Of a stretch of 64,000 bases of DNA, positions 4,527 through 10,816 are shown piece by piece. Origin of the DNA: Candidatus Nitrosocaldaceae archaeon (GTDB lineage Archaea; Thermoproteota; Nitrososphaeria; Nitrososphaerales; Nitrosocaldaceae); assembly GCA_026002835.1 (NCBI GenBank), contig BPGC01000002.1, positions 62,001-126,000 on the forward strand. The letters run 5' to 3'. Within the stretch, counting starts at the first letter, position 1, and every line of letters begins with the position of its first letter. A model generated the notes under the pieces. That model was not told where the DNA came from and did not search any database. It saw only the letters and a list, made by a program, of their open reading frames with translations. The position numbers and the translations under genes were made by a program.

Positions 4527-6140
4527 ATGAACACTCCGATATATGAAGCAATTATTCCATTGAGGAATCTAGCATTATTTAAATCAAATTATACACATTT
4601 CGATTTGCTTGATAATTTTAAAATTTCATCTTATAGATATATAAATGAAGATGATGAAGAAGAGATTAAAGATATCTGTATAAGCGTAAAATATCTTACA
4701 GAAAAAAAGTTAAAAGAATATTATACATATGATGAAGAAGATTATAGAAAATATGTACGCATATTGAGTTATCCTCAACCATCAGATAGTACGATATTAG
4801 ATGAACTTCGCATACTGGGGCATCCTCAACCATCAGATAATACGATATTAGATAAATCTCATCCATATTTAATAATTAGATTTAGTGCAGAACAAACTAG
4901 GACTTTGGAATACACTAAACTTTGTAATGTGATAGGCATTTTCTTTAGAGCATTAGGTCTCTTTAAGACAGAAAAAGTATCATTCAAGTCAGATATAGTG
5001 CATATGACAGTAGAAATAAATGATAACCATAAAGAAGTTGTAATGTCTGGTGGACTTATTCCTTATCCTCCCTCGCATGATATTGAACGTGAATATATTG
5101 GAGGATATGAGCTATTGCATAGTGAAAAAGATGTATTTGAAGAATTTTATAGACGATTTTTTGAATTCAGTAATCATCATGATGTTAGATTACAAAAACA
5201 GCGATGGGATATAAACATGGCATTAAGATTTCTTGATAGAACATTAATGACATATACATCTAATAATAAATTCACAGATAGATTCATTTTTCTTAGTATA
5301 GCATTAGAAGCACTATTCTCAAAAGGTAAAGAATCATCAAAGAAGGAAAAATACTCTACTAGAGGTGCGAATCTATTATGTGATGATCCTCAAGAGCGGA
5401 ATTGGTTATATGAAAAGATTAGTACGTTATACGATCTACGTTCTGAGATAGTACATGGAAATCCTAAATTTATGTTACACAAATATGATCTCTATGCATT
5501 ATATGAGATAGTTAGATGTTCTATCTTAAGGTTTATTGTATTATATATGAATGGATTTTGTGATATAATCGATAAACTTGATGAAATAGTCTCTGATGAA
5601 AAAGTTAGAGAAGAAATGAAGAAATATTTTTATAAAGAAGAAAATGAAGAAAAAATGAAGGTTGATCCTTCTATACTAGAAAATATAATCGATAAACTTG
5701 ATGAAATGCTCTCTGATGAAAAAGTTAGAGAAGAATGGGAAAAACGCTTGAAAAACTGCTTGAAGGAAGAAAGGTTCAGGATCGATCCTTCTATATTAGG
5801 ACCAAATTATTCAAAAATATATCCAGAATTATTTGAATGGGATAAGGTAGATGATAATCTAAATTACAAATACTCAGAATTTGTAGAATTTCTAGCTAGT
5901 ATGTTATATGAAGATAAGAAGAGACCTACATTGAAAGTAAAGAAAAAAGAGAAAAAGACTATAATTCTATCTACAGATGATAATCATGAAATAAAGATCG
6001 CTTTAGATGATAAAAGAAACGGAACTCTAATAATAGATGATAATAATAGGAAGGATAAGAAGATCAAAAATATATTCATATTAAGAGATAACAAAATATG
6101 CTATTTCAAAGGATTTAAAGTGATTAATATACAATCTTAA
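4527..6140 (+). CDS. Apea-like HEPN-domain protein with internal duplications
   Basis: 537 residues, not a known housekeeping family. Residues about 235-340 look like an Apea-type HEPN domain: FIFLSIALEALFS, then a CxxxxxxRN-like stretch, then DLRSEIVHG, which holds the R-x4-H motif that acts as the RNase centre in many HEPN proteins. The N-terminal 230 residues are acidic and of unknown fold; the last 65 are lysine-rich and beta-like. Two exact-length tandem duplications sit inside (17 aa x2 at 4758-4859; 40 aa x2 at 5562-5801). Eight arginines use CGN codons, which neighbours almost avoid, suggesting transfer. No toxin or antitoxin partner is adjacent. RNase activity is inference. Confidence 0.62.
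   Translation: MNTPIYEAIIPLRNLALFKSNYTHFDLLDNFKISSYRYINEDDEEEIKDICISVKYLTEKKLKEYYTYDEEDYRKYVRILSYPQPSDSTILDELRILGHPQPSDNTILDKSHPYLIIRFSAEQTRTLEYTKLCNVIGIFFRALGLFKTEKVSFKSDIVHMTVEINDNHKEVVMSGGLIPYPPSHDIEREYIGGYELLHSEKDVFEEFYRRFFEFSNHHDVRLQKQRWDINMALRFLDRTLMTYTSNNKFTDRFIFLSIALEALFSKGKESSKKEKYSTRGANLLCDDPQERNWLYEKISTLYDLRSEIVHGNPKFMLHKYDLYALYEIVRCSILRFIVLYMNGFCDIIDKLDEIVSDEKVREEMKKYFYKEENEEKMKVDPSILENIIDKLDEMLSDEKVREEWEKRLKNCLKEERFRIDPSILGPNYSKIYPELFEWDKVDDNLNYKYSEFVEFLASMLYEDKKRPTLKVKKKEKKTIILSTDDNHEIKIALDDKRNGTLIIDDNNRKDKKIKNIFILRDNKICYFKGFKVINIQS
4758..4859 (+). repeat. 51-bp in-frame tandem duplication in the HEPN gene
   Basis: Units 4758-4808 and 4809-4859 encode near-identical 17-residue blocks, RILSYPQPSDSTILDEL and RILGHPQPSDNTILDKS. 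They differ by few bases, so the duplication is recent, and they abut exactly and keep frame. Confidence 0.9.
5562..5801 (+). repeat. 120-bp in-frame tandem duplication in the HEPN gene
   Basis: Units 5562-5681 and 5682-5801 each encode 40 residues. The first halves are almost identical (IIDKLDE..SDEKVREE) and the ends share DPSIL; the middle parts have diverged. Predicted amphipathic helices make this look like a duplicated helical hairpin following the HEPN core. Confidence 0.9.
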
Positions 6141-6272: not shown

Positions 6273-7508
6273 ATGAGGGTTATGCTAACTAATGATGAAA
6301 TGATAACAGTAGAAGAGGTAAAGAAGGCTAGGGAAGTATTAGATGGTATAATACATCATACTCCATTGTTCAGATCTGATACATTTAGTAGGATGAGTAA
6401 TGCTGAGATATATCTTAAGGCAGAATCTTTACAAAAGACTGGTTCATTTAAGGTTAGAGGAGCATATGTAAAGATAAATTCATTAAGCGAGGAGCAGAAG
6501 AAGAATGGAGTTATAGCAGCATCTGCAGGAAACCATGGACAAGGAGTAGCTTATGCTTCAAAGATGTTAGGAATAGATTGTACAATAGTTATGCCAGTAA
6601 ACGCATCTCCAGCAAAAGTAGCAGCTATCAAAGGTTATGGAGCAAATGTAATACTCCATGGAGTATTATACGATCAGGCATGGGAGAAGGCTGTAGAAAT
6701 ATCTAAAGAGAAGAACCTTACAATAATTCATGCATTTGATGATCCTAAAGTTATAGCAGGACAAGGTACAATAGCATTAGAGATATTAGAAGAGTTGGAG
6801 AATTTTGATGCTATTGTATTACCAATAGGAGGAGGAGGCTTAGCAGCTGGTATTAGCGTCGTATTAAAAACATTAAAACCAGAAATAAAGATTATTGGAG
6901 TGCAATCAGAAGCATTTGATGCTATGAAAAAGTCTATTCAATATGGTAGAATTGTTGAGATTAGTAATGGGAATACTATAGCAGATGGTATATCTGTAAA
7001 ACGCCCTGGAGAATTGACATTCAAGATATTATCTAATAATATAGATGATATTGTAACTGTTAGCGATGATGATATAGTAAAAGCTATGTTCTTACTTATG
7101 GAGAGAAGTAAACTAGTAGTTGAACCAGCTGGTGCAATAGGTTTAGCATATCTGTTATCAAATTCTAAAGAGTTGAAAGGAAAAAGGGTAGTTAGTATTT
7201 TAACTGGAGGAAATATAGATATGTATCTGTTAGGACAGATCGTATCTAAAGGTTTGGTCAAGACTGGTAGAATGTTAAAGATCTCAATTCAATTAGTAGA
7301 TAGACCAGGAGAGCTGAAGAGAGTAGTAGATACTATAGTTGCTAATAGAGTTAATATAGTCGAGGTTTTGCATGATAGATTAAGTCAAGATGTTGCAGTA
7401 GGAAAAGCAAAGGTTACATTGAGTTTAGAGACTGAAGATGATGAGCATACCAAAAAGCTTATGGAAGCATTCAAGGCTAGTGATATAGAATTTAAGATAT
7501 TATCTTAA
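6273..7508 (+). CDS. ilvA: Threonine ammonia-lyase (threonine dehydratase) with ACT domain
   Basis: About 411 residues. PLP fold type II: the lysine in TGSFKVRG (residue 60) should bind PLP, ASAGNHGQG is the asparagine loop and PIGGGGLAAG the phosphate-binding glycine loop. Residues about 330-411 form an ACT-type domain beginning SIQLVDRPGELKRVV, expected for allosteric control by amino acids. It makes 2-oxobutanoate from threonine for isoleucine synthesis. An in-frame ATG at 6231 lies upstream of a TATA-like stretch (6248-6257), so translation more likely starts at 6273, or at 6282, which fits a leaderless transcript slightly better. The stop overlaps the convergent gene by 9 bases. Confidence 0.92.
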   Translation: MRVMLTNDEMITVEEVKKAREVLDGIIHHTPLFRSDTFSRMSNAEIYLKAESLQKTGSFKVRGAYVKINSLSEEQKKNGVIAASAGNHGQGVAYASKMLGIDCTIVMPVNASPAKVAAIKGYGANVILHGVLYDQAWEKAVEISKEKNLTIIHAFDDPKVIAGQGTIALEILEELENFDAIVLPIGGGGLAAGISVVLKTLKPEIKIIGVQSEAFDAMKKSIQYGRIVEISNGNTIADGISVKRPGELTFKILSNNIDDIVTVSDDDIVKAMFLLMERSKLVVEPAGAIGLAYLLSNSKELKGKRVVSILTGGNIDMYLLGQIVSKGLVKTGRMLKISIQLVDRPGELKRVVDTIVANRVNIVEVLHDRLSQDVAVGKAKVTLSLETEDDEHTKKLMEAFKASDIEFKILS

Positions 7509-8198
7509 CTTTAGATGGTTTAATATTATATCATTAACAGCATTAGGATCGATTATCTTCTCATGAGGATGCGCTTCTGGTTTTAATGCATGATCATAGC
7601 ATAGATAGATCAATTCTCTGTTAGGAGGGTCTTTTGCTAATGCTAGTAATGATTCTATTAAGAATTCTTCAGATCCTATCTTGCTAATGAGTTTATTTAA
7701 TTTGCTAGCAAAACCTTCACTAGATGGTTTTAGCCATAATGAGATATAATTATTTATATCTTCAAGTGAGATAACTTGAATGCTATCAGTTGCTCTTATT
7801 GCTGTATTCGCATTTAACGATACTATACCTTTTAGCATTGAAGGGCTATAAAGAGTAATACTTGGTTCATCAAGGATAAATCTTAGATTAAAGCTGCTAG
7901 GATAGATTATAGGATCGATCTCTACTATAAGCGATCTCTCATCTTCAATCCTTCTAACAGATAATGTTACCTCTTTTCTATTTCCTTTAACAATATATAT
8001 ACTGCCTTTTTCTATGTTAAGCTCTTTAACCTTTGCTTCTGTTACCTCTAATAGTTGATGTTCAGCATCTACAAACTTTTTGAATATATCTTCTCTAGTC
8101 TGCTGCTGGTATGTTCCTATTACAAACTGTTGTCTTTTCTTCATAGCAGTTATCTCTTCCTCGACCATCTTTAGAGTATTATACAAGTTTAATGGCAT
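7500..8198 (-). CDS. Conserved hypothetical protein
   Basis: 232 residues; I do not recognise a named family. The N-terminal third is charged and helical (TMKKRQQFVIGTYQQQTREDIFKKF), the middle is beta-rich with a VEIDPIIYPSSFNLRF stretch, and the C-terminal third is helical and ends with a conserved-looking PHEKIIDPNAVNDIILNHL. There is no signal peptide, membrane segment or cysteine cluster, so it is a soluble cytoplasmic protein. A TATA-like tattaaata in the 32-base upstream gap supports the start at 8198. Its end overlaps ilvA tail to tail. It may be cotranscribed with the gene upstream. Confidence 0.7.
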   Translation of the reverse strand: MPLNLYNTLKMVEEEITAMKKRQQFVIGTYQQQTREDIFKKFVDAEHQLLEVTEAKVKELNIEKGSIYIVKGNRKEVTLSVRRIEDERSLIVEIDPIIYPSSFNLRFILDEPSITLYSPSMLKGIVSLNANTAIRATDSIQVISLEDINNYISLWLKPSSEGFASKLNKLISKIGSEEFLIESLLALAKDPPNRELIYLCYDHALKPEAHPHEKIIDPNAVNDIILNHLKLR

Positions 8199-8230: not shown

Positions 8231-8746
8231 TTAGCCCTTGAGATCGGTGCTTACATTACTTCCAATTGTATCTAATAAGCCTAATAATCCTCCTTGTTTT
8301 ATCTTAACCTTAGCACTCTTCTCGTACTCTTTTTCTTTATTGATCTCGTCTAAAGGTCTAGGATCTAAAGCACCTTCATAGAAGAACTTGTAATTGTCAT
8401 GCTTCAGTTTTAGTAATGGTTCTATATACTTCCATTGCCAGTTAGCTAGAACTATATATATTCTACTTTGAAATTCGTTATTCCTTATAATATTCCAGAT
8501 TTTCTTACTCATATCTTGTATATTTTTACAATCATATGCTTCTATATGCTCTTTTGGTAAATACTCATATGCTATGCTAGGATCTTTTATGCCAAATAAT
8601 AGTATTTTTATATCATCGTCTGCATATGAACTATCTAATCTCTGAAATAATTCTTTAGCTTTTAAGAATATATTTCTAATAGTTTCTTTTGAGTTTTGAG
8701 TTTCGTTATGCATCTTACAATATACTGCTATATACTTGTATTCCAT
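8231..8746 (-). CDS. Hypothetical protein
   Basis: 171 residues without recognisable motif. The visible pattern is an alpha/beta arrangement: YKYIAVYCK, a helix, DIKILLFGIKDP, a helix, then RIYIVLANWQWKYIEPLL, as in a small Rossmann-like fold. It ends in a glycine- and leucine-rich tail (GGLLGLLDTIG). It lies downstream of the 82-base hairpin at 8931-9012 and in the same direction as the aIF5B operon, but 285 bases separate it from aIF5B, so it probably has its own promoter. Function unknown. Confidence 0.6.
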   Translation of the reverse strand: MEYKYIAVYCKMHNETQNSKETIRNIFLKAKELFQRLDSSYADDDIKILLFGIKDPSIAYEYLPKEHIEAYDCKNIQDMSKKIWNIIRNNEFQSRIYIVLANWQWKYIEPLLKLKHDNYKFFYEGALDPRPLDEINKEKEYEKSAKVKIKQGGLLGLLDTIGSNVSTDLKG

Positions 8747-8902
8747 TATTGATAGATCTTACATTCTTCTATTTAATCTGTTTGATGAAAAGTTCTAATT
8801 AGACGATCTATAAATTTATGATTCAAGATTAGTTTATTGAAATATTTCTCGAATAAATGATTATATAGAATAGTTATGTAATATAATATTACAAACAAAG
8901 AA

Positions 8903-8911
8903 ATAAATATA
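8903..8911 (+). promoter_or_regulatory. TATA-like box upstream of the hairpin RNA candidate
   Basis: The element ataaatata is centred at 8907, about 26 bases before the first paired base of the hairpin. This is the usual archaeal TATA-to-start distance for rightward transcription. Confidence 0.45.
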
Positions 8912-8913
8912 GA

Positions 8914-8928
8914 ATTACTAATAGTAAT
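8914..8928. promoter_or_regulatory. Perfect 15-bp palindrome between TATA-like box and hairpin
   Basis: ATTACTAATAGTAAT is a perfect inverted repeat with a one-base centre. It lies just downstream of the TATA-like box and 3 bases before the hairpin stem, the place where an archaeal repressor would block transcription. It could also be chance in AT-rich DNA. Confidence 0.4.
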
Positions 8929-8930
8929 AT

Positions 8931-9020
8931 TAGACAAGGTCCTAGGAGGGAAAGAGTGGATGCTGGGTTGAAATGATCCGCATCCGCTAGTTGTCTCCTA
9001 GGACCTTGTCTAGCTTAACT
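8931..9020 (+). ncRNA. Putative structured small RNA with perfect 18-bp closing stem
   Basis: Arms 8931-8948 (tagacaaggtcctaggag) and 8995-9012 are perfect reverse complements. Between them, 8954-8963 pairs with 8981-8989 (agtggatgc against gcatccgct, with one wobble), extended by GGGTT/GATCC around a GAAAT loop. The two helices are separated by a symmetric internal loop, ggaaag facing agttgt. The block is richer in G and C than its surroundings. A TATA-like box lies about 26 bases upstream and a T-tract follows, so rightward transcription of a short RNA is plausible. The other strand would be the 3' tail of aIF5B mRNA. It fits no tRNA, 5S, SRP or standard box C/D layout I can see. Confidence 0.5.
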
Positions 9021-9033
9021 ATTTTTTATTTTT
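9019..9033 (+). terminator. T-tract after the hairpin RNA candidate
   Basis: Eleven of 14 bases from 9020 are T, in runs of 6 and 5, directly after the stem. That suits rightward archaeal termination. The tract touches the stop codon of the leftward aIF5B gene. Confidence 0.45.
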
Positions 9034-10816
9034 AATAACTTATATCATAAGCATATAATGCTTCAACTTTTCTTCTCTTCTCTATCATCTCTTCTAACAG
9101 TTTGAATTCTTCATCACTCAATCTATCCTTTAGTTTTGTTAGTAAAAGATAAGCATGCTCGCTCTTTGGATATGCATATAGTATATCTCCTTCATCAATC
9201 TGTCTTCCTATAGTCGGTTCTTGCATTGATACAGCAACTTGCATACCTTTCTTAGCCTCTTCTATACTTTCTCCTCTATCTTGGATTTGATGGATAACTC
9301 CTATATCCTTACCTTCTTCATTCATTATCTGGCTCTTCTGCCTTAACCTTCCTTCTAATATCTCCACACCAAATACTGCTGGTTTACTCTTCCTAAATAC
9401 AAACCCTTTCATTATCTGGAATTTACAAGGAAATGTCATTGTTGAAAAGATATATTGTTCTTCTCTCCTCTCCTCTTCTTCTACCCATTCATTGTATTCT
9501 TTAATTAGATTATAGATGATATTCTCTCTAAAGATCTTAACACCTCTAATATTAGCCTCTTCTTCAGCATCTGGCAATACCTTAACATTAAATGCTAATA
9601 TTATTCCATAATACCTATCCTTCTCTTTAACAGCATTTGCTTCAATAACATCGCGCTTAGTAACCGATCCAATGTCTGCTTTACGGATTGGTATATTTGA
9701 TCTCTTAAGCATATCTATAATAGCCTCTAACGATCCTAAAGTATCACATTTTACTATAACTCCTATGCTATCTGTATCTATCAATATACTTTTGATCTCT
9801 GATTCAAGCATATCTTTGAGTCTTGGTATCTCTTCTTCGCTCTTTATTGAATATATTGGAGTACCAGCTAAAACACCTTCCATATCTGGCGAGACTATCT
9901 TAACACCTATAGCAGCTGATACCTCTTGCACATTCCTAAATTTATCTCTAGGATCTCTCATCTCATCTAATGGCTTTGGCAATAGTAACGCTTTTACTCT
10001 AGTTATTATAACACCATCTCGTTTAGCTAACATTATCCGATCCCCTTGCTTTAATTTACCATCTAATAGAATTATATTAGCAGTGGTTCCTAATCCTTCT
10101 TCTTCTTTAACCTCTAATACTATGCCTTTTGTAAAATCGCTTATCTCTAACCTTTTTTGTAGATATTGTTGAGTCAAACCTATTAACATTGCTAATAACT
10201 CAGCGATGCCTTCACCAGTCTTTGCACTAACTGGTACTATTGCTACTTGTTTCTTAAAGTTAGTAATTCGATAAAATGCTTCCGATTCAAATCCTAATCT
10301 AGATAACGCTCCTACTACATTATAGATCTTATTATCCAATTCTTCTATAACAGATTTATCTTGCTTTTTCAATGATTCAGTAATAAGATTAGTTTTGTTA
10401 TCCTTCCATCCTCTGATCATATCTATCTTATTAAGCGCTACTAAGAATGGAACCTTCCTACTCTTTAGGATCTCTATACTCTCATATGTCTGAGCTTCAA
10501 AACCCTTGTTTACATCAACTACTAGTATTGCTATATCAGCGGCTGAGCCTCCTCTTGCTCTTAAATTAGCAAATACTTCATGACCAGGAGTATCTATAAC
10601 CAATAAACCTGGAATCTTAACTTCAGCACCAAACCTCTCAAATAATCTTCCACAAACTTCTTTGATGGTATCTAGAGGAAAGAAACTAGCTCCTATATGC
10701 TGAGTTATCCCCCCAGCCTCTCTAGCTTGAACAATGGTACCTCTTATCCTATCTAGTAATGAGGTCTTACCAGAATCTACATGTCCTAATACAACTACTA
10801 CTGGTTGTCTTAGCAA
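9032..10816 (-). CDS. infB: Translation initiation factor aIF5B (IF-2 family)
   Basis: 594 residues, the full archaeal length. The GTPase domain starts almost at the N-terminus: GHVDSGKT at residues 11-18, DTPGHE near 75 and NKID near 130. The beta-barrel domain II, domain III and the C-terminal barrel with its helix follow. aIF5B promotes joining of the large ribosomal subunit during initiation. The start is TTG at 10816, inside the last codons of ndk (7-base overlap); a stop lies two codons further upstream, so no other start is available except a TTA-adjacent one. It is the last gene of the L7Ae-S28e-L24e-ndk-aIF5B operon, an arrangement seen in related archaea. No intein. Confidence 0.96.
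   Translation of the reverse strand: MLRQPVVVVLGHVDSGKTSLLDRIRGTIVQAREAGGITQHIGASFFPLDTIKEVCGRLFERFGAEVKIPGLLVIDTPGHEVFANLRARGGSAADIAILVVDVNKGFEAQTYESIEILKSRKVPFLVALNKIDMIRGWKDNKTNLITESLKKQDKSVIEELDNKIYNVVGALSRLGFESEAFYRITNFKKQVAIVPVSAKTGEGIAELLAMLIGLTQQYLQKRLEISDFTKGIVLEVKEEEGLGTTANIILLDGKLKQGDRIMLAKRDGVIITRVKALLLPKPLDEMRDPRDKFRNVQEVSAAIGVKIVSPDMEGVLAGTPIYSIKSEEEIPRLKDMLESEIKSILIDTDSIGVIVKCDTLGSLEAIIDMLKRSNIPIRKADIGSVTKRDVIEANAVKEKDRYYGIILAFNVKVLPDAEEEANIRGVKIFRENIIYNLIKEYNEWVEEEERREEQYIFSTMTFPCKFQIMKGFVFRKSKPAVFGVEILEGRLRQKSQIMNEEGKDIGVIHQIQDRGESIEEAKKGMQVAVSMQEPTIGRQIDEGDILYAYPKSEHAYLLLTKLKDRLSDEEFKLLEEMIEKRRKVEALYAYDISY

What the first reader, a model, noticed from the sequence alone, without database searches (positions are those of the whole stretch)
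8903..9033. A possible new structured small RNA between aIF5B and an unknown gene
A TATA-like box (8903-8911), a perfect 15-bp palindrome (8914-8928), an 18-bp perfect stem (8931-8948 with 8995-9012), an inner 9-bp helix with wobble and a GGGTT/GATCC extension, a symmetric internal loop and a T-tract stand in the right order for a short regulated transcript. The stem is richer in G and C than the neighbourhood. It matches no standard archaeal RNA class I know. The rival reading is a processing or stabilising hairpin on the leftward aIF5B mRNA. The symmetric loop could also be a target pocket, though the usual H/ACA box is not where it should be.
Basis: partly seen in the sequence, partly recalled or inferred. 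Interest (0 to 1): 0.72.

Follow-up and report, generated by a model that had tools for sequence, protein, structure and literature searches.

The report
Lone strong hairpin, probable archaeal sRNA
Between two genes of a hot-spring archaeon lies an unusually strong hairpin that looks like a small RNA gene on the + strand, but it was not found in the relatives searched and neither its expression nor its function is shown.

Summary
At 8930-9013 a 36-pair hairpin folds to -59.1 kcal/mol as + strand RNA (z -10.7) and -46.5 as - strand RNA. It is the strongest of 34,632 noncoding folds over the window and 1.46 Mb of the closest relative held, Ca. Nitrosothermus koennekii. There, 17 of the 21 strongest sister loci are rRNA, tRNA or SRP RNA by Rfam. 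It is a G+C island (50% against 18% left flank). On + all five wobbles are G-U, the three mismatches are purine-purine, and T6 and T5 tracts follow; - has no T4 tract within 60 nt. No Rfam family reaches gathering score. Best reading: a lineage-specific free-standing + strand sRNA of about 95-103 nt. Against: the sister has an 87-nt spacer without it, no relative was found, so there is no covariation and no expression evidence; the TATA match is ordinary; only 4 of 76 ORFs end in such double T-tracts. A solo mobile-type inverted repeat or an aIF5B 3'-UTR hairpin is not excluded. The own genome is not held.

The parts
8898..8911 (+). possible BRE/TATA-like promoter element (TAAATATA at 8904-8911)
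   Evidence: 6 of 8 to TTTAWATA, 20-27 nt before the hairpin; equal or better at ~39% of intergenic points, so weak. The BRE reading is recalled.
8914..8928 (.). 15-nt odd palindrome ATTACTAATAGTAAT
   Evidence: direct; 9 odd 15-nt palindromes in the window, none matching ATTACTANTAGTAAT in the sister pieces; probably incidental
8930..9033 (+). proposed free-standing sRNA (hairpin plus U-tract tail; ends inferred)
   Evidence: folding, wobble direction, G+C island, T-tracts; no transcript data
8931..8948 (+). 5' arm of the perfect 18-bp outer stem (extended to 20 pairs by G-U at 8930/9013 and 8949/8994)
8995..9012 (+). 3' arm of the outer stem
8950..8954 (+). 5' side of the symmetric internal loop (GAAAG); G.G, A.G and G.A mismatches with 8989-8993
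8989..8993 (+). 3' side of the symmetric internal loop (AGTTG)
8955..8963 (+). inner 9-bp helix, 5' side (partner 8980-8988)
8980..8988 (+). inner 9-bp helix, 3' side
8964..8979 (+). bulged T, five apical pairs GGGTT/GATCC and GAAAT loop; holds TGA...TGAT, K-loop-like but with wrong geometry
   Evidence: K-loop comparison recalled and judged by eye
9022..9033 (+). two T-tracts, T6 (9022-9027) and T5 (9029-9033): candidate aCPSF1 terminator
   Evidence: two U4-tracts as minimum for efficient aCPSF1 binding from PMC8716108 (passages)
9032..10816 (-). aIF5B, convergent neighbour on the other strand
   Evidence: Pfam IF-2, GTP_EFTU
8231..8746 (-). unknown gene, next gene after aIF5B; also next in the sister
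   Evidence: no Pfam family; ortholog L001:5873-6379

Best explanation
A lineage-specific, free-standing small RNA gene of a Nitrosothermus-like thermophilic ammonia-oxidising archaeon. Transcription (inferred) starts near 8930 on the + strand from the AT-rich box and runs through the hairpin. aCPSF1 with the double U-tract at 9022-9033 ends it, giving about 95-103 nt that fold into one rod of 36 pairs with a 5-nt loop. Because almost nothing is single-stranded, it more probably works as a stable double-stranded platform or decoy for an RNA-binding protein than as a seed-pairing antisense RNA. Shown: the sequence, the fold and its rank, the composition, the T-tracts, the absence in the relatives searched. 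Inferred: strand, ends, expression. Conjecture: protein binding as the mode of action.
For: Fold z -10.7, -59.1 kcal/mol on + against -46.5 on -; still -29.2 at 70 C. Top of 34,632 noncoding 110-nt folds over window plus sister, where 17 of the 21 sister loci at -42 or lower are Rfam rRNA, tRNA or SRP RNA. G+C 0.50 against 0.18 (left flank) and 0.16 (right flank); no other 82-nt stretch outside ORFs in the window is above 0.44. G+C-rich regions mark ncRNA genes in A+T-rich hyperthermophiles (PMC3432209, passages). All 5 wobbles are G-U on + (chance 1 in 32, my arithmetic) and the 3 mismatches are purine-purine on +. Two T4+ tracts follow within 22 nt on + (0.7% of intergenic points), none within 60 nt on -; two U4-tracts are the minimum for efficient aCPSF1 binding, and a thaumarchaeal aCPSF1 behaved likewise (PMC8716108, passages).
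Against: No expression data. Absent from the sister's spacer and from the genomes searched: 7 by DNA (one 17-nt chance hit), 7 and 400 by a one-sequence covariance model; hence no covariation. TATA match ordinary. Only 4 of 76 ORFs in the window have two T4+ tracts within 60 nt after the stop, so use of such terminators in this genome is not shown; the bacterial-type terminator scan finds none here. The - strand also folds strongly, and in the sister scan 3 of the 17 known RNA loci were listed by a fold on the strand opposite to the RNA (L085:16611, L143, L117), so fold strength alone does not tell the strand. Perfect outer arms with a diverged interior also fit terminal inverted repeats.
Confidence: 0.47

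Rival explanations
1. A solo, miniature mobile-element-like inverted repeat (or remnant): outer arms GACAAGGTCCTAGGAG as terminal inverted repeats, TA on both sides as target duplication, inserted into the aIF5B spacer. It works, if at all, as DNA.
For: The spacer is 285 nt here and 87 nt in the sister with flanking genes collinear. Arms perfect outside, diverged inside; TA flanks each arm. Composition foreign to the spacer.
Against: Single copy in 64 kb. Arm-like sites (up to 3 mismatches) in the sister are no more frequent than for shuffled patterns (5 hits; 30 shuffles gave 0-10). No such hairpin by exact-arm patterns in viral contigs; only chance matches in phages and plasmids. The interior also folds, with G-U wobbles in one direction only. 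No nearby transposase was looked for by profile.
Confidence: 0.23
2. A hairpin in the 3' UTR of the leftward aIF5B mRNA that stabilises or delimits its 3' end, or shields the downstream unknown gene from read-through.
For: It starts about 20 nt after the aIF5B stop codon on the - strand and folds at -46.5; aIF5B and the next two genes run the same way.
Against: The sister keeps the gene order without any hairpin, and by eye no such stem stands in the 300 nt after aIF5B in L002-L006. No T4 tract within 60 nt after it on -. The - strand folds less well, with A-C and pyrimidine mismatches where + has G-U and purine mismatches.
Confidence: 0.19
3. A degenerate or unusual H/ACA-type guide RNA with the symmetric loop as pocket.
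For: Stem, symmetric internal loop, stem with TGA...TGAT near the tip.
Against: 18-20-bp lower stem, no ACA after it, K-loop geometry not met, and no 16S/23S target in the sister with at most one mismatch for the three pocket layouts tried.
Confidence: 0.03

Closest known systems
Archaeal intergenic sRNAs found as G+C-rich regions in A+T-rich hyperthermophiles (Klein 2002, Schattner 2002, as told in PMC3432209, passages)
   Same: noncoding G+C-rich island in an A+T-rich thermophile genome, strong fold, small size
   Different: no expression shown; no conservation in the relatives searched; nearly fully double-stranded rod
aCPSF1 / U-tract terminators (PMC8716108, passages)
   Same: two U-tracts of at least four shortly after the hairpin
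   Different: terminators there do not need a hairpin; here the hairpin would be the transcript itself; only 4 of 76 ORFs of this window show the double tract
Archaeal H/ACA guide RNAs (recalled)
   Same: stem, internal loop, stem; TGA/TGAT near the apex
   Different: lower stem about twice as long, no ACA, no target found, K-loop spacing wrong
Miniature inverted-repeat elements (recalled)
   Same: short, perfect outer arms, TA at both borders, seen in one lineage only
   Different: no second copy seen in 64 kb; own genome not available
Rfam microRNA precursor models (MIR6140, E 0.0058; mir-3126, E 0.1)
   Same: long near-perfect hairpin shape
   Different: 25.7 and 21 bits against gathering scores of 140 and 80: shape matches by chance, families of eukaryotes (recalled)

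Membership tests
any Rfam 15 family | score at or above the gathering threshold | tested here: not met
   0 matches in the window; with E up to 10, 13 sub-threshold matches, 8 of them microRNA models
archaeal H/ACA guide RNA | ACA box directly 3' of a lower stem of about 9 bp | tested here: not met
   no ACA after the stem on either strand; stem 18-20 bp; definition recalled
archaeal H/ACA guide RNA | K-turn or K-loop with UGA and GAU directly on the stem | tested here: not met
   TGAAATGAT present, but an unmatched T and a 3-nt loop break the geometry (judged by eye, definition recalled)
archaeal H/ACA guide RNA | pocket complementary to rRNA around a U | tested here: not met
   no site with at most 1 mismatch in the sister's 16S/23S for three pocket layouts; own rRNA not available
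archaeal C/D box sRNA | box C RTGATGA and box D CTGA | tested here: not met
   neither on either strand in 8920-9034, box C allowing one mismatch
tRNA, SRP RNA, RNase P, rRNA | covariance-model or ARAGORN match | tested here: not met
U-tract-terminated archaeal sRNA gene | two or more U4 tracts at the 3' end | tested here: met
   T6 and T5 at 9022-9033
U-tract-terminated archaeal sRNA gene | discrete transcript | not testable with these tools
   no RNA-seq held
U-tract-terminated archaeal sRNA gene | BRE/TATA promoter above background | tested here: inconclusive
   6 of 8 match, matched or exceeded at about 39% of intergenic points; two attempts to learn a motif from 36 sister tRNA upstream regions gave no TATA motif
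structured RNA under selection | compensatory changes between relatives | not testable with these tools
   no homolog found
miniature inverted-repeat element | several copies in the genome | tested here: inconclusive
   one copy in 64 kb; own genome not held

The most novel reading that the evidence does not exclude
A new kind of archaeal RNA: a rod-like, almost fully double-stranded sRNA of about 100 nt, made as its own gene in thermophilic ammonia oxidisers, bound by a protein at its G.A-rich symmetric loop or its K-loop-like tip (for instance L7Ae outside guide RNPs), arising newly in single lineages.
Probability: 0.08. Interest if true: 0.6.

Novelty: new member of a known kind. Interest (0 to 1): 0.35.

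Why it matters
No title in my listings was about small RNAs of thermophilic ammonia-oxidising archaea (listings and starts of abstracts seen;'s 16 papers 8 were listed). In the sister genome the fold scan brought up mostly known stable RNAs (17 of 21 by Rfam, 2 more tRNA-like by eye), so the few unexplained places, this one the strongest, are good candidates for an experiment. If expressed, it would be an example of how a new structured RNA gene arises in one archaeal lineage.

Tried and rejected
Rfam at gathering and at permissive thresholds: nothing credible. H/ACA, C/D, tRNA: rejected. Bulge-helix-bulge processing motif: none seen by eye. Short reading frames in the stem: only 3-6 codons, by eye, rejected. 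Promoter motif learned from 36 sister tRNA upstream regions: two attempts failed to learn a TATA motif in the A+T-rich background and were dropped. Sigma-70-type and bacterial terminator scan: 3 promoter-like sites against 3.8 expected, 0 terminators; the models do not fit archaea. A 17-nt DNA hit in G007 (E 0.58) and the phage and plasmid hits (E 0.03-0.5, in the A+T flank and at most the first 12 nt of the hairpin) are chance. The 15-nt palindrome as an operator: not supported. aIF5B in viral contigs: none. In one search, runs of N in L137 flooded the sister list; only the seven rows above them were used. In one search, L007 was folded at a place that looks coding, so I leave it, L010 and L061 out of the spacer comparison.

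Full report
Where it is. The window is 32.5% G+C and its aIF5B is 79% identical to that of Ca. Nitrosothermus koennekii (L001; the other 79 loci kept are at most 69%). The published G+C of that clade is 31.9-33.1% against 41.5-42.8% for Ca. Nitrosocaldus (PMC7819960, passages). So this is a Nitrosothermus-like archaeon of the Nitrosocaldaceae. No whole genome is held for it.

The observation. The hairpin spans 8930-9013: 20 outer pairs (18 of them perfect Watson-Crick), a symmetric interior, 9 inner pairs, a bulged T, five apical pairs and a GAAAT loop, 36 pairs in all. As RNA the + strand folds at -59.1 kcal/mol (z -10.7) and the - strand at -46.5 (z -10.1); 0 of 200 shuffles fold as well on either. 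As single-stranded DNA it also folds (z -9.97). At 70 C the + strand keeps -29.2 and the interior opens to a 5x5 loop. The next longest perfect inverted repeat in the window with a loop up to 75 nt has 12-bp arms. In 200 Markov simulations two had arms of 18 or more, so arm length alone is p about 0.01, and the energy is the stronger test.

How unusual. I folded 34,632 windows of 110 nt (both strands) over the parts outside ORFs of the window and of 1.46 Mb of the sister assembly. The hairpin ranks first (-61.6); the best sister locus has -49.9. Of the 21 sister loci at -42 or lower, 8 lie in 16S/23S rRNA genes, 8 at Rfam tRNAs and 1 in SRP RNA, which makes 17. Three of the 17 were listed by the fold of the strand opposite to the RNA (L085:16611, L143, L117). 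Two look by eye like intron-bearing tRNAs, but neither Rfam nor ARAGORN calls them (L148:8281, L165:14851). Two are unexplained (L120:18151-18260 and L146:4301-4410). So in this genus a fold of this strength outside genes mostly marks a stable RNA gene, though not always its strand. An earlier scan with 90-nt windows over all the sequence also puts the hairpin first (-59.1; next -40.4, in rRNA). The hairpin is a G+C island: 0.50, against 0.18 left and 0.16 right, and no other 82-nt stretch outside ORFs in the window is above 0.44. This is the kind of criterion used to find ncRNA genes in A+T-rich hyperthermophiles (PMC3432209, passages).

Which strand. On the + strand the five wobbles are all G-U and none is A-C; the three mismatches are G.G, A.G and G.A. 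If arms diverged without regard to strand, five of five in one direction has chance 1 in 32 (my arithmetic). Within 22 nt after the hairpin on + stand T6 and T5. Two T4+ tracts within 22 nt follow only 0.7% of intergenic points, the hairpin's own tail included; on the - strand there is no T4 tract within 60 nt. Two U4-tracts are the minimum for efficient aCPSF1 binding in vitro, and a thaumarchaeal aCPSF1 showed the same cooperation (PMC8716108, passages). No protein gene on + ends here; the nearest upstream + gene of my ORF set ends at 7508. Against this, only 4 of 76 ORFs in the window have two T4+ tracts within 60 nt of the stop, so the terminator's use in this genome is not shown. The TATA-like box lies at a suitable distance but is matched or bettered at about 39% of intergenic points. 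My attempts to learn a promoter motif from sister tRNAs failed. Strand is therefore probable, not shown.

Relatives. In the sister the same two genes flank an 87-nt spacer without hairpin; here the spacer is 285 nt. By eye, no such stem stands in the 300 nt after aIF5B in L002-L006 (the other loci were compared only by blastn of the hairpin, without a credible hit). The hairpin DNA has no credible match in 7 family genomes (1 of 7 with a 17-nt chance hit). A covariance model built from the one sequence finds 0 of 7 at E up to 10 and 0 of 400 genomes drawn from the class at E up to 1, with stricter filters, while it recovers the window. Phages and plasmids give only chance matches, and two exact-arm patterns find nothing in viral contigs. 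A pattern search of 400 class genomes did not complete. A one-sequence model is insensitive, and the sister is genus-distant, so absence in close strains is not shown.

Interpretation. A free-standing + strand hairpin sRNA explains composition, wobble direction, mismatches and T-tracts together (0.47). With almost no single-stranded sequence, protein binding is more likely than antisense pairing; this is conjecture. A solo mobile-type inverted repeat (0.23) explains the lineage-specific insertion and perfect outer arms, but no second copy exists in 64 kb and arm-like sites in the sister are at shuffle level. A 3'-UTR hairpin of aIF5B (0.19) explains the position but not the missing U-tract on - or the sister's lack of it. 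H/ACA fails its defining tests.

Verdict. A real and statistically striking feature, most likely an orphan sRNA gene of a known general kind; unproven and of moderate interest until a transcript or a close relative is seen.

Noticed in passing
L146:4301-4410 (- strand): Strong unexplained three-hairpin structure in a 419-nt spacer of the sister genome; no Rfam match, and only 15-25-nt hits in the six other family genomes. A second orphan sRNA candidate.
   Followed up: partly
L120:18151-18260 (- strand): Strong branched fold overlapping the start of a 126-aa ORF that lies just upstream of an 857-aa ORF looking (by eye) like a plasmid or virus primase-helicase, in the sister genome; no Rfam match.
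   Followed up: partly
L148:8281-8390 and L165:14851-14960: Look by eye like tRNAs with introns that neither Rfam at gathering score nor ARAGORN reports.
   Followed up: no
window 8231-8746 and 7500-8198 (- strand): Two neighbouring genes without Pfam match, kept in the same order after aIF5B in the sister.
   Followed up: partly
window 4527-6140 (+ strand): 537-aa protein without Pfam match; a stretch LYDLRSEIVHG resembles HEPN/Apea-type proteins (recalled, not tested).
   Followed up: no
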